Below are positions 24,730 through 64,000 of a stretch of DNA of 64,000 nt, in pieces. The translations under genes and the position numbers were made by a program. Below the pieces are notes generated by a model. It saw only the letters and a list, made by a program, of their open reading frames with translations. It searched no databases and was not told the origin of the DNA. Every line of letters begins with the position of its first letter. Positions within the stretch are counted from its first letter, which is position 1. Source of the DNA: Cenococcum geophilum 1.58 (taxonomy: Eukaryota > Ascomycota > Dothideomycetes > Gloniales > Gloniaceae); assembly GCA_001692895.1 (NCBI GenBank), contig KV748215.1, forward strand, positions 293,720 to 357,719, given 5' to 3'.

Positions 24730-24789
24730 ATTCTATTATGTAATAGCGGTATCCGAGACGCCTTCGGACACTCGCCGGATCTCGCATCA

Positions 24790-39151: not shown

Positions 39152-39181
39152 CCGGTCCGAAAGGAAAGCCCGGTAGGCAGA

Positions 39182-41176: not shown

Positions 41177-41178
41177 TG

Positions 41179-43423: not shown

Positions 43424-43487
43424 TGTTCATGGCGGCACGCCTTATTAGCCTAATTAAGCGAGATCCTAGAATTAAAGGTAATCCATA

Positions 43488-43710
43488 TACAGCTTGTACG
43501 AGCTTCGGTTTCTCCCCCCGTGTGCGCGCAACACACACACCTAATTTCGCTAACAACTAGTCAAGTGCACTTACAAGAAAGGTAAAGTCTCTAATTTTTA
43601 AGCTTAATTGCAAGAGTTAAACTTGAAATTCTCTAGTGTGCAAGAAAGCGAAATTAGGTGTGTGTGTTACGCGCACACGGGGGGAGAAACCGAAGCTCGT
43701 ATAAGCTGTA
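43488..43710. mobile_element. MITE with 54-67-bp terminal inverted repeats, TA target site
   Basis: The left end CAGCTTGTACGAGCTTCGG and onward through CTCCCCCCGTGTGCGCG pairs with the right end CGCGCACACGGGGGGAGAAA and onward to CCGAAGCTCGTATAAGCTG. TA flanks both ends (43488-43489 and 43709-43710). Inverted repeats extend about 65 bp per side with few mismatches; the about 90-bp middle has no coding capacity. The structure is that of a non-autonomous Tc1/mariner-like MITE. Its ends differ from those of the Tc1 copy 70 bp downstream, so it is not a deletion product of that element. Confidence 0.85.
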
Positions 43711-43778
43711 AGCGAGTCCAGAAATCGACGGTCGTTCAGCAAGTTTCATTAACCTAGTTAAGCGAGATTTACCGTTTA
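43711..43778 (+). repeat. Flanking repeat unit interrupted by two transposons
   Basis: TTARCCTARTTAAGCGAGAT occurs at 43444-43463 and again at 43750-43769. CCTAGAATYRAAGGTMATCC occurs at 43466-43485 and again right of the Tc1 copy at 45169-45188. GAGTCCARARATCGACRG occurs at 43714-43731 and 45197-45220. Together they show a local tandem repeat in which one unit carries the MITE and another the Tc1 copy. Confidence 0.65.
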
Positions 43779-45156
43779 CGAAATGCATTGGAATCCTTGG
43801 CATGCCGATCCCCGATTTTTGCGCCCAACCTTACGTGCAAAACCGTGAGATAGCCCATTTCCCACATCAAACGCGCCTTATTGTCGACATAACTCCCTAC
43901 CGTCAGTCAGTAAGTTGAAGCCGACGTCGCCCTGCTATTTGCCCTATCTTGACGCGTTTCCTAGTGTTATAGTGCCTCCTATTGACCCTGCCCGTCGCGC
44001 GGATATGGTCCGTCTACTTGAATTAGGCTGGCGGCCAGATGCTGTCGCAGAACAGCTACACGTCAGTCGAGCTACCGTGTATAACACCGAACGCAACCTT
44101 ATGCGATATGGCCAGCCTATCAGGCCTCATACGAAAGGCTAGCCGGCCGGCGGTGTTAACAAAGGCTGATAGAGAGGCTCTCCTTGAACTCCTGCTCCAC
44201 GACGGTTGGAAATGTCTAGACGAAATTCAGTACTGGTTCTATCACGAACGTAATCTTAATGTTACTAGTACTACAATCCACCGTGTCTTAAAGAAGGAAG
44301 GGTGGTCAAGGAAGGCAATCAGGCGTATGGCGCAGGGCCGTAACTCACAGCTAAGGGAGCTCTATCGTGATGATATGAGGCGGTTTCCAGCAGATATCGT
44401 GGTATTCCTTAACGAGGCTATTTTCAACGAGAAGACCGGCTGACGGACGAGAGGGCGAGTTCCAATCGGTGAGGAGGCGTGCTATAAGGGCGATCTTCGA
44501 AGAGGTGATACTTGGAGTATCTACGCGGCTACAACGATTGACGGCTGGGTTTGCTATCAAGCCCGTAAGGGCTACTTCAAGATTAATAACTTTATTAGGT
44601 GGCTATACAGCTGCCTATTTCCTGCGCTTCGTGAGCGATATCCAAATCAGACTATGGTAATCGTAATAGATAACCTTCCAGTTCACGTCAACGCGCGGAT
44701 TCCAGCTACTATTAAAGAGGAGGGCCATATTATTCGCTATCTACCGCCGTACTCACCAGACTTTAATCCAATTGAGCTTATATGGGCCGTCTTGAAGGCG
44801 TGGATCCGTCGCTAGCACCTATATACTCGAGAATTCCACCATAATTATAGTGAGTTTCTCAAGCGAGCCATCCGTGAGAGTAGGTGCGATTCCTTTACCC
44901 GGCAGCAGTTTCAACACGCCGCAGGAGGAATACATATAGAACAGGCTGAGCTGGAGCGTTTACGACGTCAATTGGAGCGATTTGAGCGCCTTCTATCCAG
45001 TTTATATATCCTTTGCTTATATATAAAGCCTCCTAATAGGGACATTATATCAATAATAAGTCGCGTTAACGTGGAAATGGGCTATCTCACGGTTTTACAC
45101 ATAAGGTTGGGTGCAAAAATCGGGGATCTGCATGCCAAGGATTCTAATGCATTTCG
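43779..45156 (+). mobile_element. Tc1/mariner element, 1,378 bp, about 85-bp inverted repeats
   Basis: Terminal inverted repeats start CGAAATGCATTRGAATCCTT and end at the mirror sequence; about 85 bp pair with roughly 6 mismatches (43779-43864 with 45071-45156). TA lies outside both ends. Length and structure are typical of complete Tc1/mariner copies. The inner edges of the repeats include GTGAGATAGCCCATTTCC. The internal transposase is broken (next entry), so the copy is not autonomous. Confidence 0.9.
43915..45056 (+). pseudogene. Tc1/mariner transposase, inactive
   Basis: Order of parts: N-terminal helix-turn-helix (MVRLLELGWRPDAVAEQLHV then SRATVY), linker, second helix region (LTKADREALLELLLHDGWKC), then the DDE catalytic core: VVFLNEAIFNEKTG (the first acidic residue, normally FLDE, is Asn), VIVIDNLPVH (second Asp present), and YLPPYSPDFNPIELIWAVLK (third acidic residue present). 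A frame change lies around 44100-44150 and in-frame stops at about 44442 (TGA, likely from TGG) and 44814 (TAG, likely from CAG). D-to-N and W/Q-to-stop changes are G-to-A or C-to-T, consistent with RIP. The C-terminus contains a coiled helix (ELERLRRQLERFERLLS). Confidence 0.82.
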
Positions 45157-45711
45157 TAAACGACAAATCCTAGAATCGAAGGTCATCCATAGAGAGTCCA
45201 AAGATCGACAGACCGGATGCGGACGGCCCATGCACACATGCTAATCAATCTCCCCCCGTTACATCCTATATGTCCCTGGAATTGTCTATTCCAACAAGCC
45301 AGGCACATTGCAGAAGGTTTTAAAGCTTAAATTTAAGTCCAATGCAAAAGTGTCCATTCGCTTTTTTCTTGCGTGGATCACCATAAAATTGCAGAAATTA
45401 CAAAGGTTTAACTTTCCATCGACAAGTGCCAGAGGACTCGGCGCTTAGAACACAAAAACATCATCTATCCTAGCATGTGGCAGTGGCTTATTCCTACCTA
45501 TCTGTGGCGCCGACTGCGGGTCGCGTTTTTAAGGCAACAAGAAGGAGGCAGGCGTGTTGTCAGAGAAGGCAATCGGTGCGCAAAACTACGAATCGCAGTT
45601 GTTACTATAAGGCTGCCAATCCCAGCGTCCCCCCCTTCACTCAAAAGCTCCCACAAGAAATTTATATCTCCCCTCGACTTCTAGCACCGACCTAAAAAGT
45701 TTATTGCGTCA
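45157..45711. other. Intergenic DNA upstream of a C2H2 gene
   Basis: Contains the right-hand flanking repeat (45166-45220). No gene seen; short frames at 45475-45695 lack domains. Confidence 0.4.
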
Positions 45712-46500
45712 ATGGCCGATCTGCCACAGAACCTCGCCTGCCCATTTTGTGATGTGCGGATATTCCAGCGAGAGGACCAGCTGTATAGCCATGTTAATCT
45801 TGAGCACCCGTCAAAAGTGCAGGAAGCGGGGCTAAATCCCCAGGGAGGAACTGCCCTTTTCCGGAAAACTCTACGAGAAGAAGAGCTTCGCAAGGCGTGA
45901 GTGTTAGGCTGCCTTAGGAAACTTAGCTCGGCCCCCTTTCCTCGGCCCGCTCTATCATCCTTAGCATCTCTCCCTTGCTGGAAGCTAATTTACCTCTGCA
46001 GGAAATCTTCGGCTGATCGGCCGGCACGGGAAGCCTCGCATGCATCATCCGATGCAACTGGTTCGACACCCGACCTGACTCGGCTGACACTTGGAGGCAA
46101 GAAGAGTTCTAGCGGGAACGGCCGAGCCCCCTCGACGTATCGACCTAGTAGGAAACGTGCTGCTGGCTCTGGTGCGCAGCGTACAGAATTTGCCGTGCGA
46201 ACTCCAATCCACCGGGGCGGTCCAAAGCGTGCCAAAGTAGTCGGGTATGAGATTGCCGGTGAACCGTATACGGGCAACTCGTCCAGTGATGGGTGGTCCG
46301 TTCAAGGGAACTCCCGCTGCCGCTCTACCCGTCGGCGACAATCCGGGACCCATAGGTCGCCATCTTATTATGAAAGTCCAAAGCACAGCTTGGCAGGTGG
46401 CTTACCGTCACCGTTCAATATACAGCCAACCCTCCAACAGCAACCGGGTGTTGTCAAAATTCAGCGTTTTGATCCTCGATATCCAAACTTTCTACTTTAA
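45712..46500 (+). CDS. Small C2H2 zinc-finger protein, 227 residues, intact
   Basis: Exon 1 is 45712-45896 and exon 2 is 46002-46500; the 105-bp intron has a strong GTGAGT donor, a GCTAAT branch-like site and a CTGCAG acceptor, and the phase is exact. Residues 9-35 hold one finger, C-x2-C-x13-H-x4-H (LACPFCDVRIFQREDQLYSH). The remainder is Ser/Arg/Gly-rich and basic (RPSRKRAAGSGAQRTEFAVR), ending FDPRYPNFLL. It is likely a nuclear, nucleic-acid-binding protein. There are no RIP changes although a heavily mutated block begins 50-100 bp downstream. Start chosen at the first in-frame ATG after stops. Confidence 0.72.
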
Positions 46501-46599
46501 CCCGATTCACGCCCTATTTCTTAAGAGCAGCTTGCCTTAGAAGTAAAGTCTATATATACTGGACTTATAATAGTAGAGATAAAATATATTTATATAGAC

Positions 46600-48270
46600 A
46601 GAGCTTAGGCCTCTGCGTCTCCTAAAGCTAAAGGAGATCCTAATTCTAAACTAGTAAATAATCACTAGCAAGCATTAATTGCTCTATACCGAACCCTACT
46701 GTATAAGCATTACGACTTCTTCTTAGCCTCTTAGCATTCTTCTACTTCCCCTATATTACGTTGCCTAGTATCTAAGTACTCTATGCCTACTAGAATGTGG
46801 AAATATAGTATCTACTCTTTCCTTAAGCTATTACGCCGTCGGCTACCCGAAAGTTTGGATTATATACTCGCTTTTATATACCTTACTTATCAGATAATGG
46901 CTTTTCTCTATAAGATAGTGCCTATATTTAAGGATACTTAGATTAAATATCTTAGTAATCTTAGTTAATATTATATAGCTATTAAAGATAAGGACCTACG
47001 CGATCGCGAAACCTAGGTAAGTATTATACATTTCTAGTATAGTAAAGCTGCTAATAAGAGTCCCTCTATAGGCCGTTTATACCATTATTTAGCTATACTA
47101 GCGCGGCCTAATGCGCTCTAATAACTTTACTACTATTTATGGTCCTTAACCTGCGTTTAGCCGTTTATAAGCACCTGAGAATCTATCTTAATACTATTAG
47201 ATCTAATACTTAGCCGTTCTAAAACGTTATATTTGCACTCTCTACCCGTAGATATAAATTTTATTAAAGCCTATAGTATTCTCTTTGGAAAGCTATTATT
47301 AGAAGGCTTTAAAGAAGCTCTTATATTATTCTTAAGTTAATTAGATAATTATATTAGGCGCGTAACCGCTAAATAGAAAACGTAAGGTGTCTATATTGCC
47401 ATCACTAATATTACTAGACTTTTTAATTACGGCTTATAGGACTTAATCCTTAGGTATGCCTTCCAGTTATACGCTAAAAAATCGCTCTATAGCTCTTACA
47501 CTAAACAACTATTAACTCCCTTAGATAATGGTTTAAGTCGTTCGCCATCTTTAGATTTTCTAGAACTAAAACACTTTTCTAATAAAGAGCTATCCGCTTA
47601 GCTCCTTAAATTATCCTCCGATTTTATATTCTCCCGTACTTATTGTCTAATATTTTTAACTTTAGCTCTTATTCTTCGGCGTATTAGGGACAAAAATGTT
47701 CTTCCTTATATTCACGTTTTGTTTATATTCCTTTCTACCGCTATTTTAATCTTATATATTAGCACATTGCTATATAATATCGCCCCCTAGTTAGAAATCG
47801 TTGTTTTCCTTAATACGTTATTAAAGTCTAAGAGATACGAGCCGCTTATTATAAACGATCTATTCCCTAATTAAGATTAAAACGACAACCGTCCGTTACT
47901 AGAAGATTACCTTATATATAAGCAAGTTTAGAGTTAATACTATTTCCTAGAATAGTAGTTTAGTAGTAAGCATAATGAAGAGAAGCACTCTTTTAAACTT
48001 ACCTTAACAATTAAATTAAAAACGGAGTGTATTCTACGCCTTAGTTAATAAATCGCATCTATAAGATTAAAGGCTATAATTAAGGACTTTTAGCCTAACT
48101 TTATCTTAGTATAAACGCTGGATATATTATAACCGCACATCTAATACGTGGTCTATGTCCTCTGTATTTATATAAGTCCGGCTAGGGCACGAAACTAATA
48201 AAGAGGGTTCTTATTCCTTAAATCGTACGTTACTGTTAGTTAATGTAATAGATATAGGTTAAAAGCCTGA
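46600..48270 (+). pseudogene. EST1-like DNA/RNA-binding domain protein, RIP-degraded
   Basis: EST1-type domains are found in telomerase-associated and decay proteins; in fungi a related family is amplified in accessory DNA. One plus-strand frame reads through most of 46600-48270: IALYRTLLYKHYDFFLAS, KYSMPTRMWKYSIYSFLKLL, RRRLPESLDYILAFIYLTYQ, YYIAIKDKDLRDRET, SKAANKSPSIGRLYHYLAIL, ARPNAL, and a C-terminal half with FNYGLxDLILRYAFQLYAKK and LIFLTLALILRRIRDKNVLP. The core W...RDRE...W...Y.KAA...P..GRLYHHLAIL...ALQQL...P pattern of the EST1 family is recognisable. Numerous TAG/TAA codons sit where Gln or Trp belongs. No PIN nuclease domain is seen. The start is unclear. Confidence 0.7.
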
Positions 48271-48426
48271 TAATGTTTACGATATTAATGACGACTTACT
48301 AAGGGTGCGAGATCTTAGAGCTAAACGAAGAAGTTTTTCTAGTTAACTATAATTAGCGCCTAAGACTTAGAATCTAAGCGCCACCACGACTTAGAGCGGC
48401 TATGCGCCCGTTCTTATAAAGGCAGC

Positions 48427-48504
48427 TAATAGGATTCTACTTAGGAATTACACCGTAAGATAATACTGCGTGTCTTCTTTTAGTGCTCTATTAATGGTCC
48501 TATA
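48427..48504 (+). repeat. Dispersed repeat R3, copy 2 (RIP-shifted)
   Basis: Partner of 17751-17826. Differences run C to T (CTACTTAGGAATTACACC versus CTACTCAGGAATTACACC) and G to A (CTCTATTAATGG versus CTCTGTTGATGG). Confidence 0.85.
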
Positions 48505-48550
48505 AACTAGGTTATAGTTTATAACGCTAATCTACTACTTAATTAACAAG

Positions 48551-49112
48551 ACGTATTTTAGATACTACTTAAGGAGGGCGATTGGAGCGTTATAATTCCA
48601 GATAGTGGTATATAGCCGCATATAATGTTAATTTATAGGCGTATCTAACTAAAATATCTAGTTATCGCTAAGCTCCTTATACTATTAGGGAACAAAGATT
48701 TAACAGGTATAGCTGCATAAAATGCTCTTAGTAGCACTAGGGCTGCTATTATAGAAAAGAAAAAAGTGCGAATTGCTACCGCTACGGATAGTAATGTTAC
48801 TTAGCGGTTTATGGCTAAGCAAATAGGCGATTATATGACGGAAGGAGGAAGGAATTTAGTTAAAGCCATTATTAGGGTGGCTTATAGAGAAAGTGATCTA
48901 AACTAAGAGGCTCGAGGGAGCCGTTTAGGGGACTATCTAGGAGCAAAGCCTGCCGTTCTTATTACTAAGGATAGAGCTATAAGGCTTAAAGCTACCACAA
49001 TAGGGGTTGCCACTATTGCCATATTTATAATTAAGAAAGTTCTAATCGCACTAAGGAGAAAATCCAACTCTGAAGAAAAATATCTCTTGAAAGAGCTCGG
49101 TAATAATGTTTA
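48551..49112 (+). pseudogene. Unidentified protein remnant with a membrane segment
   Basis: One frame is readable for about 185 codons, broken by a few TAG/TAA. Readable blocks: GDWSVIIPDSGI, LVIAKLLILLGNKDLTGIAA, NALSSTRAAIIEKKKVRIAT, GGRNLVKAIIRVAYRESDLN, and a likely membrane helix ATTIGVATIAIFIIKKVLIA followed by basic residues. It ends at TAA 49110-49112. The family is unknown. Confidence 0.4.
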
Positions 49113-51773
49113 ACTACCGGTTTTCTTTTAATAAATAGTCCCTTATAGGAAAAGCGCTAGGCGTTTTCTTTAAGCAAGATCTGTTTCTCTATAATAAAAT
49201 GCAAGCTGCGCGAGTACTCTATGCGTTTCTAAAGTTAAACCTCTACCGTTTACACCTAGAACACCTAACTCTACACACTTTATTTATAACTATTTGCTAA
49301 CCGCGGTTAAGATCTAGGATTATATTAGATATATAGACACTACTTTAAGTAGGATAGACTATGGCCAGTTAAGCGAGTAAAGGGTAACACTTAAAGAAGG
49401 AGGAGTAAAGACATGTGCTGAAAGAATAAAATGAGGAAAGAGGTCTATAGTTTAGAGTTACGACGTTGAAATAGGGACGGGTAAGTCACGAATAGCGGTA
49501 ATGAAGAAGAGGCGAGTTTGGGTAAGAGGCTGGCGTAAGTATTTATACCTTTTCTCTATAGTGCCGACTGGGTCGACTTTTAAGGACCTAAAAGGTGAGC
49601 ACTTCAATGGCTAATGTGGTGGGTTTTATGGGTTAGGGTGGTAAGCAGGGGAGGGCGGTAACAGGGGTGACACGCCTAAGGGCGATAAGGAGTTGCGGGG
49701 TTCGACGCAGTGTTGGAGCCTCGATTTAGCTCAGAAGGTGGAAATTATCAGGCATAAATGGCAACTCTATCGTATAGCATTGGTGGGATTGGTAGATTTT
49801 AGCTTTAGAGCTGCGTAATCCAGGTGATATAATATATAAGTATTGGGCTATATCCAAATTCTTACCATTTAGAGCATTCTATTTAAGGAAAATTAAAAAG
49901 TGCCTACTACTAAGTTTGGGTTAATATTTATTTCTTACCCGCTAGGAGAGGATAGTATTATTAACAGAGAGCTGTTTCCTTAAGGCTTATGCTATTTCAT
50001 TTTAATAAGTAAACTCTCCAGATAGTGCTTTCGCAACGCTATTTTATATATATAAGATTTAACTTAAACTAAGCCATTGCGAAGGGGATATTTTTCTAAA
50101 CGCTACTATCTCCTAGGAATACCACTAAATTATAAAAAAATGAGAATGTTATAAGTCTTGGCCAGTTTAAGCAGGCTACCTTTACATCTTAGTTATTATA
50201 GCTTAAGGTTAGGAGGAAATATAAGTATACTGGTTAAAAGGCCAAAGGAACCCTTTATATCCTGCTCTTTTAATAATACTAAAGTATCTATCTTACTCTT
50301 AATATTATAAGTTATTGGACAGTACTACCTAATAAGGTGCGATAGCTGTAAAATCTAAATAGAGGATATAAGTTTAAGGATATATATAGCTTAGCTAAAC
50401 CGCGATCTATTAGAGTTGGATATTATAGAGTATCTATATATTAAGAACCGCCTAACTATACTAAGGCGTAATAGGAGGACAAGATAGCTAAAAGTTATCT
50501 TTAAAAAGTTTATCTACCAATCTAAATAGCCTAGGAGTTTACCTATTTTAGAGTTTATGTTATAATAAAAGATAACGGTCTTAAGACCAAAATTGGACTT
50601 AAGTATCTACTACCGTTTAGCGATTGCCGGCTCCGGTTATTGCATCTTATACTTTATTATATTCTATTAGGGTTAACTAGTTATCTATAGACTTAATAGG
50701 TAGACTCTTAGTAAACCTTTCTATTTAGGACTTGCAGGACTGTTTATAATTAAGTAATAAGTTATAATTGAGGCGATACTAGTAGGACCAATTGGTTATA
50801 AACGGTCCATACGTTTTTAGGCCCAATAAGCGTATATAGTCCGTTTGAGTGCATCAGCCTTCCTAGCATTTTACTGCTTTATCCCACTTAGAGTAGGATA
50901 CCTCTCGCTAGGGGAGCAGAAACTCTTCTTTAATTATTCCTACTAGCTTAAGTAACAACTTATTAATATAAACCTTAGGTCCTTAGCTAAACCGATAATA
51001 AAGTCGCAAAGTAAGAATTGCGGAAGATCCTTTGGCGTAGGCCTTAAGATGCGCTCTAAGTTTAGTAATACTAACGGGAAATGCCCATGTAGTTTAAAAA
51101 TGTGTTATTTTTGGGTTTAGTTAATAGGGTAACAAAATGCAGATCTCTAGAGACCGCTTAATTTGAAGTCTAGCTACCTATATCCTGCTCTGGCGATCTT
51201 AATGCTACTAAAACTATTAGTGTAGGTTCTATTATAGCGTGGGGTAAACTATTTTAGTCCTACCAGGAGGTTAAAGCGTTAGTTAGCGTATAGAAACGCT
51301 AAGGCTGTACTAACTGTAACTAGGGAATACTCCGAGTTCTAAAATACGGAGTTGCTAGTGATAATTGTGTTATCTTCTCTTGTTATTAAATTAAGCTAAC
51401 TGCTATATTTATGGTTAACTAATAACCTAGCGTTTTATAGTGGACACTAATTGGGTTTTTAAACGTTAGCCGTGTACAGCGTATTAAAATCTAGATTTGG
51501 CTGCGTAATATACCCTATTATAGGCTTAAGTTCGTATAAGCGAACCTGCCGTGCTACTATAGTTTACTAATAACCGAACGTTTATAGTAGGTTGTTCTTT
51601 CTAATAATAGGTTCTTACTATACGGCGTGGTTAAGAAGTGTATAATATGTTAAATGTGATATGTTCTATAGTCTAGAAATAAATTTCAAAGCTAGTAGCA
51701 TACTAATAAATAGACTGCTATAATTAGCTAGGAGTGGAATAACGAAAAAGATATATAACACTAGATATAGCGC
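49113..51773. other. RIP-mutated DNA, no gene assigned
   Basis: 49350-49850 is G/A-rich and relatively GC-balanced; 49850-51773 is AT-rich. Weak minus-strand coding texture is visible near 50200-50850 but with frequent stops, and no family motif could be read on either strand. Confidence 0.4.
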
Positions 51774-53635
51774 GAAGCTCTATTATTGACCGAGAGTTTA
51801 GTAAAATTAAAAGGGCTACTAAAGACCTCCTGGTACGTTAAAGATATATAGCTTTAGCCATATCTGACCAGATTTAGGATTGGGTAAAGGTATTCTATGC
51901 CGACAATCTTCCTTATATTTGCAAAAATGAGGATATTTTAATCAATATAGGGGTTAAATGGGACAAGGTTTAGAAGGGCCTAGAGAATATTTCTATATAT
52001 TTTAATAAATATACGGAAAATCCTAAGCCGCGTAAAAGACGTAGTAAAAGAATATTAGGTTTAGCGTCTACCCGTCTAGGTATTTAGAGGGTTTAATATC
52101 CGGACTTAATTAAACTTTCTACTAGCGACTGTAACCAACTTACTGTTAAAGAGTTATAAAACCTTTTTTATACCTTTCGCTCTATTCTTACAGAGGAGGT
52201 TTATAAGGACGAATTTATCCGGATTAAAGTGCCTATAGAACCATTTGACTTTAGTAGAGCGCATAAAAGATTCCCATCGGTAGATTTCGAAAGTACTATA
52301 TTTTAGCTTCACTATAACAACCTCTTAAAAAAGTCTCTAAACTCTTTAGTCTATTAGGTAGGCTAAGGTAGGCCCTATAAGAATCCTTTTATACTAGATA
52401 TAAAGGCGCCTACTCCATATAAAGATCTACCTTCGTTACCGACCGCGCAGTCTTAGGGAGATTAGCTAACCGAATTAATCGGAGGATTGCCTATTAATAT
52501 AGACTACTATATACTTAATGCAAAAGACCTAGAGATATAAGCCTCGATTGGCTTGCCTCTAATACTACTTTAATATAATAACCGCTTAATGCAAACAGCC
52601 TAGAAGTTAGAAGGTATACACTACCCCTATATATATATTAGTCGAACAATATCGCCGTTTAGTATATATATTAAAGATACCGGTCTTAGCTCTATTAATC
52701 TCCTCTATACTAGCTCCCTAAAAGTATAGATTATTATACCCCTATACTATTCCCGTCTCCTTAAATCTAAGCTAAGAGAAACCTTTCGCAGCATTAAGTC
52801 TTATACTTAATTTGTCCGCTATTTAGCTCCTCTTATTACCCCGTTATAATTGCTGAAATAGAGTATTAATTTTACTATTATCCATTAGGAACCTAGGTAA
52901 GTTATTAGAGTTCTAGAAGATATATACCACTTTAGGCTAAACCTGGGTCCTAATTACGCTAAGGCCATTAACTTAATACCAAAAGGCAACTAGCAAGCTC
53001 CTATTAGTTACCGATTCTGCTTAGAGAAATGTATAAAGGATGCATATATTAACGCATAAGATTTATCTATCTTGCCCAGCAATTCAAACCGGGAATTTTC
53101 TCTATTATTTGAAGATGATATAAGGCCTGGATATAATTAAGTAGCTATAAATAAACGTAAAAATAATACAATCTCGGATATAGAATTCGACGATTAGCTT
53201 TTAGAAACGCCTAACTCGGCTAAATTAACCGACTTAGATGCTCTTAAGCGTGAGTTAAGGAAAGCGCTCGAACTAGAAGATTATAGAACTCCTCTTAAAG
53301 TAGTTTCGTCTGTTAGAGTTCCTAATATGCAATCCACTAATATAGACGCTCTTTAAGGGTCCTCTAAGCTTTCTTCGTTGTTTAAAGAACAATCCTACAC
53401 CTCTTCTACCTATGGGTTGGATGTTGAATTTGCAATAGACCTCCATCTTATAGATATACCGATGCTAAACTCTATCCTAGACGGCGGTTCTAAGTACCCC
53501 TTACCGAGATCCTTAAGTATGCCACCACTAGATAGTTCCGAAGAACTACTAGCTCTAGATAACGACACTATTATAGATATATATACCCTAACATTAACGG
53601 TTATGTCTATAGACTTTGTAAATACCTACTACTAG
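51774..53635 (+). pseudogene. JmjC-domain protein (KDM4-like oxygenase fold), RIP-degraded
   Basis: JmjC proteins are Fe(II)/2-oxoglutarate oxygenases, often histone demethylases. One plus-strand frame reads for about 600 codons: N-terminal coil (VKLKRATKDLL), RKRRSKRILGLASTRLG, then the JmjC region: HYPYIYISRTISPFSIYIKD (the metal-binding H-x-E/D now reads Y-x-K), LSSINLLYTSSLKV, IIIPLYYSRLLKSKL, IYHFRLNLGPNYAKAINLIP (distal His kept) and APISYRFCLEKCIKDAY. The tail is Ser/Asp/Leu-rich, ending DFVNTYY at TAG 53633-53635; its last 85 codons are open. Stops lie at expected Gln/Trp sites. His-to-Tyr and Glu-to-Lys at the metal site match C-to-T and G-to-A change, so the site was lost by RIP and not by selection. 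Confidence 0.72.
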
Positions 53636-54289
53636 ACCCCGAGGTCCGAATACTACGTTAAGTAAGCGTTAGGACTACTTTTAGGAGGTAGGGAAAGTAT
53701 ACTTAAAGCGGGACTTAAAGCAGGCCATAGATCCTAGGTATTAGGAAGAAAGAGAAAATATATAATAGACGAGGGCTTTTCTCTAAACATATATATAGCC
53801 TCACCGATCTCAACCACTAGTGACTGTTAGATGTGCTGCCTTTAGGCCTCCGCGGTGGCCGCGGGCTATAAGGAGCATCAAATACTATATATTTTAAAAA
53901 TGTAAAATAATCGTCTAGAAGATCAAACAGATGGATGTGTGCTTTAGACGATTTAACTAATATATAAGATTGGGAAACTAGCAATTCTTAAGTGTTTTAG
54001 AGATGCTATACGTTATATAGAGTCTTATATACCTATAAAAGATATAGTAAAGAGCATAGACGGTATTATGGAGTTATATCTTGTAGTAGAAAATTCCGAA
54101 TATAATATTAGTTTAAATTCCTTATACGAGCACAGGTCCGCTTTTTATTGATACTTTTAGAGCTTCTCTAAGGAAGTTAAAGTAGTAAAAAACTAACGGG
54201 CCGAGTCCCGGAGTAAGATTAGGAAAAAAGTAACTACTATAGTTTATAATACGGTTGTCCCTCGCCTGGAAAAGCTTTACCTATATAAC
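53636..54289 (+). pseudogene. Unidentified coding remnant
   Basis: From about 53960 to 54560 a plus-strand frame reads with stops: KLAILKCFRDAIRYIESYIP, KDIVKSIDGIMELYLVVENS, KVTTIVYNTVVPRLEKLYLY. No family is recognised. Its end overlaps the local duplication described next. Confidence 0.3.
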
Positions 54290-55600
54290 AACTGTAAGAA
54301 ATCGAAAGCTGAGCTAAAGAAAACTATCACTAAAGGACGTACACTTTATCACGCCCTCTTATACCTTAATTTAAGTTTGCTTCTACTATTCCTAGGCCAC
54401 CCTTTAACCCCGCTGTTACTTGACCTAAATTTAAATAATCCGCTAAACCAGATCTTGTACTTATCGCATCAATTTAAGAGATATTAGTTAGTAATCCGCT
54501 CCACTATAGGTTGCGGGAATTGCTAACAGTACTAGTTTATTCTAGCTTAGTTACCCTAATATAGGTTATAAAAAGATTTGGGAGTACCTTAGAAAATACC
54601 TAATTAAAATATTACCTGGGTTAAAAGAACTTAATTTAGCTAATGTTCTCGATATTCTTAATGGCTTACCCGTGGCTTCGACTAAGGTTAATGCTAATAT
54701 CACAAGCAAAATGAGGTTGATGAGTTGCTTAGATAAGGAAATCGCAATGGTATAGCGGGGAAGGGGAATTTAGGGCTTGTTTTAATGTAACTAGAGGAAT
54801 TCTTATTACTATACTAAAATATTCTTTCTATCCTCTGCCCTCTTGTATAAATTCTATAATATGGTGCATACTGTATTCTAATAAAGTGAATCTTTACTCC
54901 ACTGAATTATATCTCTTATTTATATTAGTAAACTCATCCTATATATCCTCTACGTAGGGTGATCCTAAGCTAGGTTATGCTTAATAGAAGCATATAGTAT
55001 ATCCTAAGAGCTAGCCCTATTTAAAGGGCTTCCGCTCTTTATTAATACTTCCGAAGCTACTCTAAGCGAGTTCTAGGAAAAAAGCAACTTCTATACTCTA
55101 TAATATGCTTACCCCTTACCTAATAAAGGGTTTTCTATATAATAACGTAGATAAATCAAAAGCTAAGCTAAAGAAAACTATCTATAAAGGACGTTTACTT
55201 TATTAGGCACTCTCCTATATTGCTTCTATTATTCCTAGGCTATCCTTTAACCCCGTTGTTGCTCGACCTAAATTCGAATAATCTATAAAAGAAAATTCCG
55301 TACTTGTCGAATCGATTTAAGAGACACTAGTTAGTAATCTACGTTACTATAGACTATAAGGATTTTCTAACTGTACTGGTTTATTCCAGCTTAGTTATCC
55401 TATTAACTACGATTGGATTTACTTACTTTGTTTTCAGTTACCTATTACCTTATAACTCGCCACCCTGTTTCTTATTACTATATTGCTTACTACTAGTTTC
55501 TGTTACCTGTACCTACCTTAGGCAAAATGGGGCTAATGAGTTGCTTAGATAAGGATATTACGATCGCGCCGCAGAAAAGGGAGATTTAGAGCTTGTTTAA
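54290..55600 (+). repeat. Diverged local direct duplication (54290-54790 and 55145-55600)
   Basis: The two copies share AAAGCTRAGCTAAAGAAAAC, CTTTAACCCCGYTGTTRCT, RATTTAAGAGAYAYTAGTTA, and at their 3' ends ATGAGTTGCTTAGATAAGGA. The copies differ by many transitions and small indels, so the duplication predates or accompanied the RIP damage. The unique piece between them (54791-55144) is AT-rich. Confidence 0.75.
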
Positions 55601-55904
55601 GTAGCATATATTTCGCACGTTATTATACACAGTATTATTGTCTATCTATATATATGTGGCCGTAGGTAAACGATTTTATATTCTACGTGCTGTGGTAAGT
55701 AAATTAAGAAAATTGCCTAGCGCCTAATCTGTAGGTTGGTGCGCACGAATTAAATAAAGTAGTCTATCTAGAGCTGGATTTCTAATATTATTACTTATTC
55801 TAGTAATTGCGTTTTAGAGGAGAACTAAAAATGGATTAGCTTGTCCAGAGTTATACGTAATAATTGCACTAAGAAGTCCTTAAATAACTGCATTACCTGC
55901 TAGT

Positions 55905-56030
55905 GGTGCTATAGGTACAAGTATAGGTGTAGGTATAGATGTAGGCGTAGGTATAGGTGTAGGTACAGATATAGATGTAGGCGTAGGCGTAGGCGTAGGT
56001 GCAGGCGTAGGCGCAGGCATAGGTGCTTAA
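55905..56030 (+). repeat. GGYRTAGGTGTA minisatellite (codes Pro-Thr on the minus strand)
   Basis: Six-base units GGTGTA/GGCGTA/GATGTA repeat about twenty times. On the minus strand they give alternating Pro and Thr within the Gln/Pro-rich fossil. Confidence 0.85.
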
Positions 56031-56069
56031 TTAAAGTAGCCCCTAGTTAGATTTTAATAGACTCTAGCT

Positions 56070-56295
56070 GGATTCTAATAGGCTGGATTTTAATAGGCTG
56101 GATTTTAATAGGCTAGATTTTAATAGGTTAGATTTTAATAGGTTGGATTTTAATAACCTCCGGGATTTTAATAGGCTAGATTTTAATAGGTTGGATTTTA
56201 ATAGGCTAGATTTTGATAGGCTAGATTTTAATAGGCTGGATTTTAATAGGCTGGATTTTAATAGGCTGGATATTGATAGGCTGGATTTTGATAAC
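56070..56295 (+). repeat. 15-bp minisatellite TAGGCTGGATTTTAA
   Basis: About 14 units of 15 bp with few differences (GGCTAGATTTTAATA, GGTTGGATTTTAATA). On the minus strand each unit codes the five residues Q-N-P-A-Y with the Gln codon mutated to TAA or TAG in many copies. Confidence 0.88.
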
Positions 56296-56984
56296 CTCTA
56301 GCTGGATTAAAGTATCCCCTAGCGGGACTAGGGAAGCCCTAGGCTAGGGAGGTATTTACTTAGCATATATTCTGCCTAGAATGGGCTTATCGTCTATCTA
56401 GGGGCCAATCAGATGGTATACTCTGTTTACTATTATAATATATACTTATAACCTACTGGTGAGCTACTATATCTAAATAGAGCAGTGTATTTGCGTAATT
56501 ACTAAATATAAAGAATTCGTACTCTTCTCTATTTCTAATTTCGACCTACGTCTAGGTAGCCCTTCCAAATATAATATTAGGGCGTCTTCTTAGGAACCTA
56601 ACTCCTCGGACTACTAGATTTTCCCCACTATATTGTATCTCTCTTAGGGTTTCTACGTTTCCAACATTCATATATATTGTTCGCTGTGCTTCGCGGGCCC
56701 ATTTAATAAAATTTTGTGCGATGTTAAGTCCTCCTAATATTATGTCCGTAGGAACAACATTGAAAATTAGCGTCCCTTATTGTTGTCCGTCATTCTTAAA
56801 GAATAAATAATATAAGTCGTTATCGCTTCTTGTTCGTACTGAGATTAACTCTCTCTAAATATTTTGGTCCTATGCAAAAAAGCGATTATTATGTACTCTC
56901 CACACTGGATTAGCGCCCTGGGGAGGTCCCATCCCTAAAGGAGGAGGAGGTACCCATTCTAAGGGTGCGCTATAATTAGGTGGA

Positions 56985-57300
56985 GGCTGTTAAGGAGGTA
57001 TGCCTTAGTAAGGTGCGCTATAAGGTAGAGGTGGAGGCTGTTAAGGGGGTAGAGGCTGTTGAGGGGGTAGAGGCTGTTAAGGAAGTGGAGGCTGCTAAAG
57101 AGGCGGAGGCTGTTAATGGGGTGGAGGCTGTTGGTGGGGTGGAGGCTGTTAAGGAGGCGGAGGCTGTTAAGGAGGCGGAGGCTGTTAAGGAGGCGGAGGC
57201 TATTAAGGAAGTGGAGGAGGCGGAGGCTGTTAAGGAGGTAGAGGCTGTTAAGGAAGTGGAGGCTGTTAAGGAAGCGGAGGCTATTAAGGAGGCGGAGATA
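56985..57300 (+). repeat. 18-bp minisatellite GTTAAGGAGGCGGAGGCT
   Basis: About 17 units of 18 bp, or partial units. On the minus strand they code Pro-Pro-Pro-Pro-Gln-Gln with one Gln codon mutated to TAA. The plus-strand open frame across it (56980-57360) is a by-product. Confidence 0.88.
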
Positions 57301-57849
57301 TATCTGGTGTTACTAAATCAATCACTATTAGACTTCTCTAGTACTGATATATTAGTGTAATTGGGATAGGGTGCCTAGATATTAACTGAGATATTTTACC
57401 TTCCTAGCGACCTACATCTTCCAAAAAGTCGTTATAGATTAAGTTTTTGCGGTTTTGAAATAGATTATATAGATTTTAAGTAGGAAGAGGTGGAGAACCT
57501 AATTGTTGGAGCCTATCCGATGCCGCTTGTAAGATAGGGGTTAGAATATTTATATTATTCTTTTAAATAAGAAGTTGTAAGTATGACTGAAGTTCTTAAT
57601 AAATTAGATTAGAAGTTGGGTAACTTATAATGGCGTCTGGTAGCTATCTTTTATATATAGGCTAGATATTAAGATCCTTATCTATAATACGCCTATATAA
57701 TAGATAAGGTATATTATTATCCTATAAAAGTGCCGTAATACTTAGGCGAACAAAACACTCCTTATGAAATTTGTGCCTATAGAGGTTAGGTCTAGATGTA
57801 GGTTCTAGGTTATTTAAAGGTGCATGTTAGTATATGGCGCACTCTAGTT

Positions 57850-58115
57850 CTTAAAGTGGCTGTTAAAGTGGCTGCTGAAGTGGCTGTTAAAGCGGTTGTT
57901 AATATGGCTGTTGATATGGCCCCTAAGGAAGCTGCTGCTGCTAAAGTGGCTGCTAAAGTGGCTGTTAAAGCGGTTGTTGATGTGGCTGTTAATATGGCCC
58001 CTAAGGAAGCTGCTGCTACTGAAGTGGCTGCTAAAGTGGCTGTTAAAGCGGTTGTTGATATAGCTGTTAATGTGGCCCCTAGGGAAGCTGCTGCTGCTAA
58101 AATAGCTACTAAAAA
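57850..58115 (+). repeat. GCTGCTAAAGTGGCTGTTAAA-type repeats
   Basis: Units of 21 bp and longer higher-order units (with a GCCCCTAAGGAAGCTGCTGC segment) repeat three times. The minus-strand coding is the Gln-Gln-Pro-Leu repeat of the fossil. Open frames on both strands in other frames are shadows. Confidence 0.82.
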
Positions 58116-58434
58116 GGCAGGCTGACTTTGGGAACAATTTCTTCAGGAACATTTTGCTCTACTAGGGATAAGATATATCCTAGATTTTAGCTCATTAATT
58201 AGTTACTTGGCCTATTAGTAATTACCGTCTTATTATTAATACTTTTAACGGTAGGCGTAAGACTTTGTCCCCTTCTCTAATCTCCAGTTATTGTAAATAT
58301 AGACTATAATCTAGAGCTTCCAGCAGCGTCTAGCGGGATTCTAGATTGCGAATTAACTTATATTAGTTGATTAGTTGTAATTGGATTAGATGCTCTGGAT
58401 GTAGGTAGTTCTACTAATACGTCTTATAAGGCGG

Positions 58435-58800
58435 AACCTCCTACGGGTCTATTAGTAGTAAAGAAGTTAGGTAGATATAAGGCGGAGCCTAGCTGTTATA
58501 AGGTGGAGCCTAGCTGTTATAAGGTGAAGCTTAGCTATTATAAGGTGAAGCTTAAGGTGGAGCCTAGCTGTTATAAGGCGGAGCTTGGCTGTTATAAGGT
58601 GAAGCTTAGCTATTGTGAGGTAGAGTTTAGCTGTTATGAGGTGGAGCCTAATTGTTGTAAGGCGGAGCCTAGTTGTTGTAAGGCGGAGCTTAGCTGTTAT
58701 AGGGCGGGGCTTAGCTATTATAGGGTGGGGCTTGGCTGTTATAGGGCGGGGTTTGCCTATTATGGGGCGGGGCTTGCCTATTATAAGACGGAACTTAACT
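58435..58800 (+). repeat. 21-bp minisatellite AAGGCGGAGCTTAGCTGTTAT
   Basis: About 16 units of 21 bp. The minus strand codes a seven-residue unit Leu-Gln-Gln-Leu-Gly-Ser-Ala with Gln codons mutated to stops. The plus-strand open frame 58503-58913 is a shadow. Confidence 0.85.
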
Positions 58801-59008
58801 GTTCTTGTCTAAAGTTACGCGTAAGTGCGTTAGGGTTAGCAAGTCCAAATAAGCTCTATAGAACCCCGTTATGGCGCCCTCTACTTCTTAATCCTGGCGT
58901 CCGTGCTAGATAAGCTAGAAAAGATCCTCTTTTAGGCGTTCTTCCTTACCGAGGAGATTTAATAAGAGATTCTTCGTCGTTACGGCGTATATTCAATCTT
59001 GGGGGCAT

Positions 59009-59939
59009 ATTAGGGAAATAATAATTCTCTTTAGTCTAGCTGATTTGCTCTGAAATAAACCTATATTTATAGTTCTTATATAGATTATAGAAATTAAATT
59101 TAGAGTGTAGGTACCTTAATAGTCTTGCTTCCAAAGTGAGAAGGTAGGCTTAGTTAACTAAATTTAGAAGATACCCGCATGACTCTCTACTGTTAAAAAT
59201 TAAATTGTATTAAATTCTATGTTCCACACTCGTTTACCTTAGGGGGCAATAGTGGACGCTCCCGACAATACGACTCCTAAGCCTCCTTAGCCGAATTTGG
59301 AGCATCTATTAACTCCTTTTCTTTTGTTATAGTATCCGGGAGCTAAATGTAATCTAGATATATTAATATATTTCTAAACGTGTGCAAAATTCACTTACTA
59401 GGCTGTAGAATAGCTCTTTTTAATTCTAATAGGTTTTGATGTATTTGGTCGACCTCTAGGCTAATCTATATAATATGATCTTTTAAGCACTTTATAGTCT
59501 TGCACTTGCTTAGGCAGCAGCGGGGCTATCTCTAATTTAGTAACTAACTGAAAAATAAATCGATAGCTTACTTTAGTGACATCTATTGCAACAATACGAT
59601 TTATTTAAAAAGATGCGAATATTTGCAATGAAATATAAGTTTTTAAACCTATCATTATTATGTCTAAATACGCGCGCGAGTGCAGTGCTCTATATAAAGC
59701 AATAGTAAAATATAAGCCCCTAGGTTCTATAATAAACGTATTTAAGGACGTGCGTAAGTGTAGTGCTCTATATAAAGTACGGGATAAGATTTTTAATAGC
59801 ACTAGGAGTATACCTAAAACAGGGGTGATATAAAAAGCATTTTCTGCAACGTAGGAGGTTTTATTAGTGCCTTCTTATTTTATATAAATTACATCTTTTT
59901 GACCTACTTCTGTAAGCTAAAGAATTAATTCCTTACGAA
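59009..59939. other. AT-rich intergenic region between two divergent fossils
   Basis: Upstream of both the Gln/Pro-rich fossil and the following plus-strand fossil. A repeated TATAAAGYA / GCAGTGCTCTATATAAAGC motif occurs at 59680-59700 and 59760-59778. No gene seen. Confidence 0.45.
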
Positions 59940-60692
59940 ATGGATCCTCAAGACGCCGCCTGGATGAAAGAGTTCGAGACCTTTTTTAAAATTAATGCAC
60001 TTTCTAAGCTTTCCAATGACTCTAAACGGCAGGAAATATCGCTTTGGGATACGATTTCCATGCCGAAAACCCCCTGCAGCTCTCCTATAACGTCGACTAT
60101 AGGAGTAATTATTGACCCTTGGCTCCCTATAATAATGGATACAAATATATCTCTGCCGCATTTTATACCGCTTAAGGACGACCAATTCTTTATAGGGCTT
60201 CTTTCTAATCCTAACCTTCCTTAGCCCCAATTCAATACATCTGGCTTATTAGATATGCCGCAGCTACAGGATATAACGGATAATTTGTCGCTTCTAAATC
60301 CAATATACATTTGCCTAGGCATTTTCCAGCAACCTATCTGCTCTGATTTAAGTTTAGCATCCTTAGTTTAAGCAGTTTAACAAGAAATACCAGACCCTAA
60401 CTTCGAAAATGCGCCTAGTCGCAAAGAGTTATATAATTAGTACGTTTACCTACTAGCTTGAATTTATAGTGTTGCTAAAAGTTTTATAGAATTGAGGCAT
60501 TAACGCGGTAAGTTTCATAGCCATTACTTTTTCTTAGATTATTAACTCTTGCTAGTCAATTATAGGTATATAAAGAGTATCTATAAAGTATACAAGCATG
60601 GAGTCATACTATCAGCAACGATATCGCAATGCTGAAGGATAATTCACGTTATAAAGAGGGCCCAAAAGCCAAGAAACTGCGCACCCGAGCTT
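59940..60692 (+). pseudogene. Unidentified acidic protein, possible regulator, RIP-degraded
   Basis: ATG 59940 begins MDPQDAAWMKEFETFFKINA and the frame stays open to 60222, then continues with stops at Gln-like positions: FNTSGLLDMPQLQDITDNLS, GIFQQPICSDLSLASLV, AVAKSFIELRH-type, SHYFFLDY, then WSHTISNDIAMLKDNSRYKE and KKLRTRA to a TGA at 60690-60692. The C-terminal part is partly repeated 1 kb downstream (61490-61735). No family is recognised. It is divergent from the Gln/Pro-rich fossil. Confidence 0.45.
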
Positions 60693-61735
60693 GAATAGTT
60701 GTATTATACTTATACCTTTTGTTTTATTGTTTTATACTATTAAGAACCGGTAACGAATATTGAGAAGTAGTTTCCTGATATAGATCACTAGCATTTCTCA
60801 TTATCTTGGAAATGCCTTGGCCAAATCGAATTGTCTTATTGTAATAGAATTTAGCCACCTCCGAAAGAATGCTATTATGTCTTTCCGTATCGTGAAGTCT
60901 TTTATCCGCAATTACCATTTCTTTCTGCAATAGTATTTCCCTTTTCTTAGCGTTTTCAATATCATGCTTTAGAATGGCGTTTTCAGCTTAAAGCTTTGCA
61001 ATAGTAACGTAAAGAGTGTTAGAGCCTGCCGGCGCAATCTCCTGGAGTAATTTCTTTCCTTTAGGGATGGCTTGGAAACCTGACCCAACGCTATAATATA
61101 GGTCTTAATGCGCTTTAGTCAAGTGTTTGCTAATCTATTTAGTAAATAAATATTTTTTATTAGAAGAGATTTCCCAGTCATAGGGATCCTGGCTTCTAGT
61201 TATTAACCAAACATTCTAGGGCAAAATATCAATATTTAAAGCCTCCTTTAAAATTGAAGTTAGTGAAACCAGATTAAAAAAGGCCTCTACTAACTAATAT
61301 GTTTAGCAAGCTAAGCCCGACACTGCTTTCTTCAGTCGATTTTACCTTCCTCCATAGTGAGTAATCGTACGCCCTTATATTATATACCTAACAGCCACTA
61401 TATATATACGGGCCCTGGTCTAGGAATAGACCCCTATAAAATTTAATAGGATGTATCTAGGGGAGATAGGCGCCTACAAACATTCTCTAAAATTGAGGCG
61501 TTAACGAAGAAGTGTTATATTTATAAAGTAACCAAGGATTACTAACTCTTAGAAGTTAAGTAAAGATGCATTAAGAGTATCTTTAAGAGATTTAGGTATG
61601 GAGTTATAATATTAGCAATAATATTACAACGATAAAGGAAAATTTACGTTATAAGAAGGGTCTACCTGCTAAGAAGTGCTGAGCTTAAATTACCAGTACA
61701 AGTTGTATTATGCTTTCACTCTATATTTTATTCTT
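60488..61735 (+). repeat. Diverged direct duplication (60488-60725 and 61490-61735)
   Basis: The pair shares AATTGAGGCRTTAACG, AGAGTATCTWTAARG, TATGGAGTYATA, ATTYACGTTATAARRAGGG and AGTTGTATTATRCTT. It encodes the C-terminal end and downstream region of the acidic-protein fossil. The minus-strand coiled-coil fossil lies between the copies. Confidence 0.7.
60724..61300 (-). pseudogene. Coiled-coil protein remnant
   Basis: One minus-strand frame: ILPQNVWLITRSQDPYDWEI-like start (first stop at Gln), KKYLFTK, SVGSGFQAIPKGKKLLQEIA, then a coiled coil (AENAILKHDIENAKKREILL, QKEMVIADKRLHDTERHNSI) and YNKTIRFGQGISKIMRNASD, ending LNSIKQ at TAG/TAA about 60724. The last 68 codons are open. The coil after a PKGKKLLQ segment resembles C-termini of pogo-type transposases, but this is weak. 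Otherwise unidentified. Confidence 0.45.
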
Positions 61736-62137
61736 TTATCCTATGCACTAAAAGAGGCCCGTGCGCGAATACTAAAATATTAATATGTCCTCCAAGGACC
61801 TAATTCGGCTATACTCTACGTAATATACCCCTCTATAAAGAAGGACCTTGCTAATAGGGATACCTTAGCCTAATTAGGACACGATAGAGTTAATTTAAAT
61901 AGGTGGCTGAATAAATAGACGACTCCGTCGTCCGTTAGGTAATAGAAATAGGTAATAAGACATTTAATATAACATTTTAGTTATAAGTTAAGAGACACCT
62001 AAGATATAGTTTATATAGACGATCTAGACCGACAGATAGTAGTAGATTGTGGTAAGGAACCTTGATTTAGGTCAATAAGATAAGAATATAGCAAAAGAGA
62101 AAAGGTCGGGGAGGATTGGCAAATGAATGCTAGCGAA
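61736..62137. other. AT-rich intergenic DNA, no gene recognised
   Basis: RIP-like composition. GACTCCGTCGTCCGTTAGGT at 61921-61940 recalls CCGTTAGGTGACGAAGTCGC in the left arm of the giant palindrome (2699-2718); the shared CCGTTAGGT may be part of an element end. Confidence 0.35.
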
Positions 62138-63550
62138 TTAGTCAAAAAATGGATTGTTCGCGGATTTTTCGTTAAGAGGGGAGTTTCCTCTAATATCTCC
62201 GTGGCTGCTCGTCCGTAGATAACTAGGGCTAGCTACTAAATCGCCGACGTTATGCGCACCAACTTGGCCAACCTTTTCAGCTTCCGAGCTATAGGCGTTA
62301 GAAGTTGGTTTATATAGCGGTGCTGCGGTATTGGGCTGGGAGTCGTAGCCTTAAAAGGTTTTAGTGATAGGATCAACCGTATATACCTGGCCGCTTTCCG
62401 CATAGGTTTTTTCGCGCCTAAAAAGGAGTATACAAATACGGACTACGCCAATGAGCGCAACGAAGACCCAAATTAGAATGAGGTAGCTTGCAATGATCGC
62501 TTCTATACGGATACTATTCTGAAGTTTATTTATAAGCTCGAGAACCAAGGTAGAAATGTCGTCCGCGGTGCTGCTACTTGGGTCAGCAAGGAGATTTGCT
62601 AAAGAAGAATTACTCCTAATTCTAGCTATAGTACTAAGTAAGAAAGTGTTATTTGCAAGTATAGGGAAGTTAATATATACGTTATATAAGACCTATATAG
62701 GCTTTCTTTTAAAGCTTAAGTAGAATAAGGCAGTTTAGAATACCTATAATAGGGTTATAGAGAATAGTCCCTCTAAAAGTAGTATTAAGTGCACCTATTA
62801 TCTGGTCCACAAACTCGTTTAAAGTTAAATCTACGGCTGTAGTAGGCAAATTTCCTATAAAAGGGTTTTAGGTATTACTACCTAACTTAACTAAGCTCTC
62901 TAAATCCACCCCTTAAATATTATCTTTTCTATCTATAAACGCACCGTTTATACCATTGAGAGAGAGTATTTTAGCATCTTCCGCTATATAATCGTAATCT
63001 GATATAAGGTTAGTTTGTAGCTATCGAAGATAAGAGAGGGTCTAACTATCTATGTCTATCCCTTCTAGAGCTAAAGAATACTTGGGAAGAGCAAATCTGA
63101 GGCTAATAAGGGCTCTTAAAGCATTATCCTTTTTCTCCTACTCCTATACTATAATGATTCGTTCCATTGCTTGTCTTAATCTCTCTATAGCAACTTTTGT
63201 TTCTTTAACAACCTTATCGTTCTCGTTAAACTTTCCCTTAAGTATTTGAAATCTACGTTAAGTTTGTAGCCAAAAATTCTAAAACCGTAACTCGGTTTTG
63301 GACTACTTATTTTGTAGAGATGCGATAGTAATACGATCTTAAATAAGCTCTTCTTTAAGTATTTGAATATAGAGATACGTCTAACAACGATATACCTTAG
63401 GCTTAATAATAGGTTCAGAGGGGCTCTAGGCGTAATCTATATTAGCTATAACTTGAGTAAGGCAAACCGGGTTAATGAAGGAAAATTTTATAAAATCCTC
63501 GCTTATCTGAGACGAATATGCTTGATCTATGGTATAGAGAGGTTCTAAGG
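62138..63550 (-). pseudogene. Prm1-like (plasma membrane fusion) protein, RIP-degraded
   Basis: Prm1 is a multi-pass membrane protein that acts in cell fusion during mating. On the minus strand readable blocks in order are: KVAIERLRQAMERI and a helical segment; NPFIGNLPTTAVDLTLNEFV and DQIIGALNTTFRGTILYNPI (typical of the second extracellular loop of Prm1); LNCLILLKL; then, after a frame change, INKLQNSIRIEAIIASYLIL and IWVFVALIGVVRICILL (last membrane helix); and a cytosolic tail TKTF-stop-GYDSQPNTAAPLYKP ending NNPFFD at 62138. Stops fall at Gln-like sites (TTF-Q-GYDSQ). The region upstream of about 63100 does not clearly match Prm1. Family assignment rests on these blocks only. Confidence 0.5.
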
Positions 63551-63684
63551 TAAAGAAATTCGCTTATTTAAATAGAGGAATCACTCTTATATCCGACTAT
63601 AGATAATGCAGCTCAATCCTAGCCTTTTAAATTGCTTAGTGACTTAGTGCGCTAGTCTAGCTTATATTTAACCGCGGGATATAA

Positions 63685-63812
63685 ATAGATCAGGGGACTC
63701 CCCGGGGGGATCCCGTAGGGGCTTATCCCGTAGGGGTTATTCCCCTAGGGGATATATCCCCTAAGGGTTTATTCCCCAGGGATAATAGGGGCTTATTCCC
63801 CTGGGACATCTT
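63685..63812. repeat. GGGG/CCCC minisatellite with palindromic units
   Basis: Repeated CCCGTAGGGGCTTAT / CCCCTAGGGGATATA / CCCCTAAGGG / CCCAGGGATAATAGGGG units alternate so the array is partly self-complementary. GC-rich island inside AT-rich RIP DNA. Confidence 0.75.
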
Positions 63813-64000
63813 AGACATCCCTATATCTATATCTTCCCGATCCTCTACTTATTACATCTATATTATTTACCCAGACTAAGGCCTTTCGCACTACCTACCG
63901 TTATTATGGCTTCCTTAGAGAATTAATATATAAGATATAAATCTACCATTAATTGCTATATGCAACTCACTCCGAAATTCTAATTTGTATCTAAAAGTGA
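63813..64000. other. AT-rich window end, nothing recognised
   Basis: No coding sequence, repeat or RNA is seen. Confidence 0.5.

What the first reader, a model, noticed from the sequence alone, without database searches (positions are those of the whole stretch)
55646..59008. A 1,120-codon frame written over by CpA-to-TpA change at glutamines
Start and stop are in one frame 3,363 bp apart, five repeat blocks keep register, and TAA/TAG replace CAA/CAG at repeat-defined Gln positions. It is a natural readout of RIP: the repeats tell what each codon was. The central non-repeat block looks folded and conserved and has no family I recognise.
Basis: partly seen in the sequence, partly recalled or inferred. 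Interest (0 to 1): 0.7.

Follow-up and report, generated by a model that had tools for sequence, protein, structure and literature searches.

The report
RIP-ruined duplicated fungal gene
This is a long fungal gene inside a large duplicated stretch of chromosome; a known defence against repeated DNA has riddled all four copies found with stop codons, which is an expected result, though I could match the gene to no named family.

Summary
Window 55646-59008 (minus) is one 3,363-bp frame with 94 internal stops, all TAA or TAG. It lies in a segment of about 38 kb (window 45167 to about 19 kb past the window's end) found four times in this 177-Mb genome; all four copies of the frame are broken and no intact one was found.

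The frame was a real gene. In one alignment 31 of 35 distinct gaps inside it are multiples of three, against 10 of 34 outside. Start and stop sit at the same place in all copies. One block carries a RING-H2 ligand pattern in all four copies, with Tyr at many Cys/His positions.

The central block matches no Pfam or PDB family; that it is folded is not shown (pLDDT 37.7).

Verdict: a RIP-degraded, duplicated gene with a probable RING-H2 finger. The kind is known; the gene family is not named in the libraries searched.

The parts
55646..59008 (-). RIP-broken protein-coding frame, 1,120 codons plus stop; 94 internal TAA/TAG
58476..58803 (-). tandem array, 21-bp unit (LQQLGSA-like heptads)
57851..58113 (-). 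tandem array, 12/78-bp units (QPLQ-like)
57695..57841 (-). RING-H2-like pattern C-x2-C-x16-C-x1-H-x2-H-x2-C-x16-C-x2-C with Tyr at part of the ligand positions
   Evidence: (zf-RING_2 E 0.036 in 1 of 4 copies)
57296..57850 (-). non-repeat block 1: RING-like pattern followed by a stretch predicted helical at low confidence
57028..57297 (-). tandem array, 18-bp unit (PPPQQP-like)
56067..56293 (-). tandem array, 15-bp unit (NPAYQ-like); 12 stops and 3 Gln
55912..56025 (-). tandem array, 6/18-bp unit (PT-rich); no stops
45167..64000 (.). window part of the duplicated segment; it runs on to about 83031 in window numbering (C40:376750)
52628..52972 (+). JmjC-like stretch inside the segment, below Pfam's cut-off (22.9 of 24 bits)
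59940..60320 (+). start of a probable divergent neighbour frame, stops inside; its end was not determined and the end given is arbitrary
   Evidence: read by eye; no Pfam match in six frames

Best explanation
The frame is the remains of a single long gene for a Gln/Pro-rich protein of about 1,100 residues: N-terminal block, Leu-Gln heptads, QPLQ repeats, a RING-H2 zinc finger with a further stretch, PPPQQP repeats, an unassigned block, NPAYQ and PT repeats, C-terminal block. The gene sat in a large chromosomal segment that came to exist four times. Repeat-induced point mutation (RIP) then hit all copies: CpA became TpA on either strand, so Gln codons became stops, and Cys and His codons became Tyr. 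None of the four copies found can make the protein. Shown: the frame, the four copies, the RIP signature, the damage. Inferred: that the host is a fungus (from the RIP signature and fungal-type domains), that the RING-like pattern was a working RING-H2 finger (probably of an E3 ubiquitin ligase), and how the segment was copied.
For: Four copies of the frame's blocks, all with stops inside; RIP indices; transitions 381-383 versus transversions 48-61 per pair; 72 codon columns hold both stop and Gln. Gaps 3n in 31 of 35 distinct cases inside versus 10 of 34 outside, same alignment; 35 of 37 in the frame's own alignment. ATG at the same place in 3 of 4 copies and ATA in the fourth; final TAG in 4 of 4. 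RING pattern found in one frame only of six in each of 4 copies, in 0 of 5,000 shuffles of column order; all 32 ligand cells are the expected Cys/His or else Tyr, and 6 of 8 columns keep the ligand in at least one copy; Pfam zf-RING_2 at E 0.036 in 1 of 4 copies.
Against: The RING pattern was first seen by eye, so the shuffle test is after the fact; Pfam's match is weak; two of eight ligand columns are Tyr in all copies; the model of that block is poor (pLDDT 48.3). Many of the 3n gaps lie in arrays whose units are 3n anyway. Among variable C/T columns only 169 of 356 are followed by A, and of 247 G/A columns only 70 follow T, so what still varies between copies is not purely CpA. Gln pairing is not special to this frame. 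Stops do not single out the frame: frame +2 has none in the arrays (0 of 397 codons), and outside the arrays one frame of the other strand has fewer stop columns (49) than this one (59). Copy C15 has two in-frame TGA, which CpA change does not make.
Confidence: 0.8

Rival explanations
1. The frame is a coincidence of low-complexity, AT-shifted repeat DNA without a gene.
For: Stops do not single out frame 0 (95, 79 and 86 stops in frames 0, 1, 2 of the window copy); no database family for most of it.
Against: 3n gaps inside (31 of 35) against chance-like gaps outside (10 of 34); start and stop at the same place in the copies; RING pattern in one and the same reading in all four copies.
Confidence: 0.05
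2. Stop codons are read as Gln (a changed code or suppression) and the gene is alive.
For: Every internal stop of the window copy is TAA or TAG, 18 of 94 facing Gln in another copy.
Against: The same C-to-T change pervades the segment outside the frame, on both strands; Cys/His positions are hit too; copy C88 has two 1-bp gaps; stretches elsewhere in the window (14001-26000, 38001-46000) have near-normal CpA.
Confidence: 0.01
3. The segment is a giant mobile element (Starship-like or of an unknown kind) and this gene its cargo, rather than a plain segmental duplication.
For: Four dispersed copies spanning about 38-49 kb on four contigs; mixed content: JmjC-like, DUF7727, MADS-box (SRF-TF) and ankyrin matches; the genome has at least 165 DUF3435 matches, most with stops inside.
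Against: No DUF3435 or other transposase domain at E 0.05 or better in the parts of the segment scanned (at E 0.01, found DDE_3/HTH_23 only just outside it, 43990-44818); none of the listed DUF3435 places is within 100 kb of a copy (the nearest on C15 is about 102 kb off; only 100 of 346 candidates scored, list cut); no terminal repeat longer than 13 bases found between the ends of the window copy; left ends differ between copies.
Confidence: 0.3

Closest known systems
RIP-degraded endogenous gene repeats of Stagonospora nodorum, e.g. X3X3R8 (Hane and Oliver 2010, PMC3017866; abstract, passages and Discussion seen)
   Same: A cluster of ordinary genes, including a ubiquitin-pathway gene, present as repeats and worn by CpA-to-TpA change until similarity searches fail.
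   Different: Here four copies of a segment of about 38 kb or more; the gene is RING-like instead of a ubiquitin-conjugating enzyme; no RIP reversal was done.
RING-H2 zinc fingers (Pfam zf-RING_2, PF13639)
   Same: Ligand order and spacing C-x2-C-x16-C-x1-H-x2-H-x2-C-x16-C-x2-C fit the RING-H2 rule (rule recalled).
   Different: Tyr stands at part of the ligand positions in every copy; Pfam reports a weak match in one copy and none in the other three.
Starship giant transposons (search listing only; features recalled)
   Same: Size range, dispersed copies, mixed gene content.
   Different: No captain (DUF3435) found in the scanned segment and no element ends defined.

Membership tests
RIP-degraded repeat | Repeated DNA of sufficient length and identity | tested here: met
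   3 further copies at 87-90% identity over the 581-bp block; a 1.5-kb stretch elsewhere in the segment also has 4 places
RIP-degraded repeat | CpA/TpG depletion with TpA excess | tested here: met
   exception: the window copy's left edge 45161-46400
RIP-degraded repeat | Differences between copies mainly C/T and G/A | tested here: met
   window copy against C8, C15, C88: 383+49, 381+61, 381+48 (transitions+transversions)
RIP-degraded repeat | CpA preference among sites still variable | tested here: inconclusive
   C/T columns followed by A 169, T 86, G 54, C 46, gap 1; G/A columns preceded by A 77, C 72, T 70, G 28
RIP-degraded repeat | Made in the sexual cycle by RIP enzymes (RID/DIM-2; recalled) | not tested
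   Enzymes not searched for in this genome
RING-H2 zinc finger | Eight ligands in RING-H2 order and spacing | tested here: inconclusive
   32 of 32 cells Cys/His or Tyr; 6 of 8 columns hold the ligand in at least one copy; 0 of 5,000 shuffles; no single copy has all eight
RING-H2 zinc finger | Profile match above curated cut-off | tested here: not met
   zf-RING_2 E 0.036 in 1 of 4 copies; RIP damage would lower any score
RING-H2 zinc finger | Zinc binding / E3 ligase activity | not testable with these tools
   No intact copy found
Starship | DUF3435 captain at one end | tested here: not met
   Not found in six-frame Pfam scans of window 42000-56002 and 59000-64000, L029 and L031; window 56002-59000 scanned only as five pieces of the frame of interest; flanks of the other copies not scanned
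Starship | Defined ends with target-site duplication | tested here: inconclusive
   no convincing terminal repeat between the ends of the window copy; the other copies' ends not all read

The most novel reading that the evidence does not exclude
The unit of about 38 kb is a giant mobile element of an undescribed kind without a DUF3435 captain, and the 1,120-codon RING-H2/Gln-Pro-repeat protein is one of its own genes rather than a copied host gene.
Probability: 0.1. Interest if true: 0.55.

Novelty: new member of a known kind. Interest (0 to 1): 0.3.

Why it matters
It is a clear worked case of how RIP erases a gene family: Gln codons turn into stops, while Cys and His converge on Tyr, which can hide zinc fingers from profile searches. 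Treating Tyr as 'Cys, His or Tyr' brought out a RING-H2 pattern that Pfam reported in only one of four copies, and weakly. The cause and the kind of relic are well known, so the interest is modest.

Tried and rejected
Pfam on five pieces of the frame with X at stops: nothing except Ipi1_N at E 0.011, below its cut-off, for the C-terminal piece. PDB by single sequence: best E 0.37 and 0.091; by profile: best E 0.42 and 0.32; judged chance. HTH_45 at E 0.15 for block 1, judged chance. Structure models of both blocks have pLDDT 37.7 and 48.3; no fold search was made because such models give meaningless matches. Viral contigs: 129 and 274 pattern matches, none a relative. Rfam on window 45000-64000: 0 matches at gathering scores. 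My first idea that the ATG at 59008 was not shared (the copies' stretches cut begin ACT/GCT/ACT) was wrong: the window copy lacks one codon after the ATG, and the wider alignment shows ATG in three copies and ATA in one. In one search the neighbour frame was given one base out of frame (59941 instead of 59940), and one search was cut from 59942 (DNA, so no matter); the six-frame scan covers the right frame and found nothing. Protein 7 (L015) was a single arbitrary frame. In one search the first two residues of the second piece were mistyped (LS for VG).

Papers: search listings; passages of PMC4014442 (not used) and PMC12543289; abstract, passages and Discussion of PMC3017866. No claim is made that RIP at Gln codons is new.

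Full report
What is there. Window 55646-59008 on the minus strand is one 3,363-bp frame from ATG to TAG. It holds 94 internal stops, all TAA or TAG; TGA is absent in the window copy and in C8, but C15 has two. Five tandem arrays lie in it, with main periods of 21, 12/78, 18, 15 and 6/18 bp, all multiples of three and in register; other arrays of the window also include 3n periods. 60 of the 94 stops are in the arrays, where 56 Gln also occur; 34 stops and 26 Gln lie outside them.

Copies. The window is C40:293720-357719 of a genome of 177,193,698 bases in 162 contigs. The central block has three further copies, on C8, C15 and C88, at 87-90% identity. Protein searches with two blocks found the same four places and no fifth, all with stops inside (these searches score only the best candidates). 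The copies belong to a segment shared from window 45167 to position 83031 in window numbering (C40:376750). A 1.5-kb stretch near its other end is also present four times. Its right end has further matches, the best a partial copy on C7 at 87%. From the four copies span about 38, 45, 49 and 40 kb (C40, C8, C15, C88).

The mutation process. CpA/TpG is depleted and TpA enriched over the segment in all copies, while window 14001-26000 and 38001-46000 are near normal. In the frame, the window copy differs from each other copy by 381-383 transitions and 48-61 transversions. Both fit RIP (PMC3017866, passages; PMC12543289, passages). Against a simple picture: among columns still variable, C/T followed by A is the largest class (169) but not the majority of 356, and G/A preceded by T is 70 of 247.

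Is the frame real? 18 of the 94 stops face Gln in another copy, 4 face Trp, 1 Arg, 7 another codon, 2 nothing, and 62 are stops in all aligned copies. Across all four copies frame 0 has 155 stop columns, of which 96 hold sense in at least one copy; frame +1 has 113 and 54, again mostly CAA/CAG; frame +2 has 112 and 47. Gln pairing is thus a property of CpA change in any frame. Outside the arrays frame 0 has 59 stop columns, fewer than four of the other five frames but more than one frame of the other strand (49). Better evidence: in one alignment of window 49394-61760 with its copies, 31 of 35 distinct gap runs inside the frame are multiples of three against 10 of 34 outside; in the frame's own alignment 35 of 37 are. 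Many of these lie in arrays with 3n units. The ATG is at the same place in three copies and ATA in the fourth, the window copy lacking the next codon; the final TAG is in all four, with gaps that are not 3n outside on both sides. Copy C88 has two 1-bp gaps inside the frame.

What the protein was. Block 57296-57850 carries C-x2-C-x16-C-x1-H-x2-H-x2-C-x16-C-x2-C, the RING-H2 order (rule recalled). In the four copies all 32 ligand cells are the expected Cys or His or else Tyr; six of eight columns keep the ligand in at least one copy; no single copy has all eight. Tyr is what RIP makes of both Cys and His codons. Over the whole frame, RING columns included, 11 columns hold both His and Tyr and 5 both Cys and Tyr; 40 columns are Tyr throughout, and some pair Tyr with Arg, Leu, Ser, Pro or others. 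The pattern occurs once in the frame, in none of 5,000 shuffles of column order, and in one of six frames in each of the four copies. Pfam zf-RING_2 matches one of four copies at E 0.036. The pattern was noticed by eye first, so these tests are after the fact. The central block (56393-56914) matches nothing in Pfam in any of four copies and nothing convincing in the PDB; its model is poor (pLDDT 37.7), so 'folded' remains open.

The surroundings. A probable divergent gene starts at 59940 (read by eye). The segment also holds a JmjC-like stretch at 52628-52972, just under Pfam's cut-off, a DUF7727 match (E 2.7e-31), a MADS-box match (SRF-TF, E 2.9e-7) and ankyrin matches (best E 3.2e-12). No DUF3435 captain or other transposase was found in the scanned stretches of the segment, although the genome has at least 165 DUF3435 matches, most with stops. 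The two ends of the window copy share no convincing terminal repeat. I cannot tell a segmental duplication from a mobile element.

Verdict. A real, RIP-degraded, four-copy gene with a probable RING-H2 finger and no family named in Pfam or the PDB. The closest precedent is the RIP-degraded endogenous gene repeats of S. nodorum (PMC3017866). New member of a known kind; interest 0.3.

Noticed in passing
window 45161-46400: The left edge of the shared segment is not mutated in the window copy, while C15 (43-57 C-to-T/G-to-A per 250 bp one way, 0-5 the other) and, from 45661 on, C88 (42-51 one way, 4-6 the other) are; the change sets in at about 46400. It holds a C2H2-like ORF (zf-Di19 E 2e-4, below cut-off), and matches of 200 bp or more, several with shared block limits, occur at nine places besides the four copies.
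   Followed up: partly
window 1278-5143: A 3.9-kb palindromic self-match (97%) with GC of 0.21-0.23 and CpA o/e of 0.08-0.14 in its core, the strongest RIP signature in the window.
   Followed up: no
window 43990-44818: Transposase remains (HTH_23 and DDE_3; Tc1/mariner type by recall) just left of the segment.
   Followed up: no
window 62826-63928: A piece of the segment that is in opposite orientation in all three other copies.
   Followed up: no
window 54220-54782 and 55074-55598: Tandem duplication of about 0.5 kb, about 75-79% alike, spaced 0.82-0.85 kb.
   Followed up: no
window 31596-33367: Cluster of short tandem arrays with periods of 4-35 bp in a part with GC of 0.46-0.50; pieces match the C8 and C88 stretches at 74-76%.
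   Followed up: no
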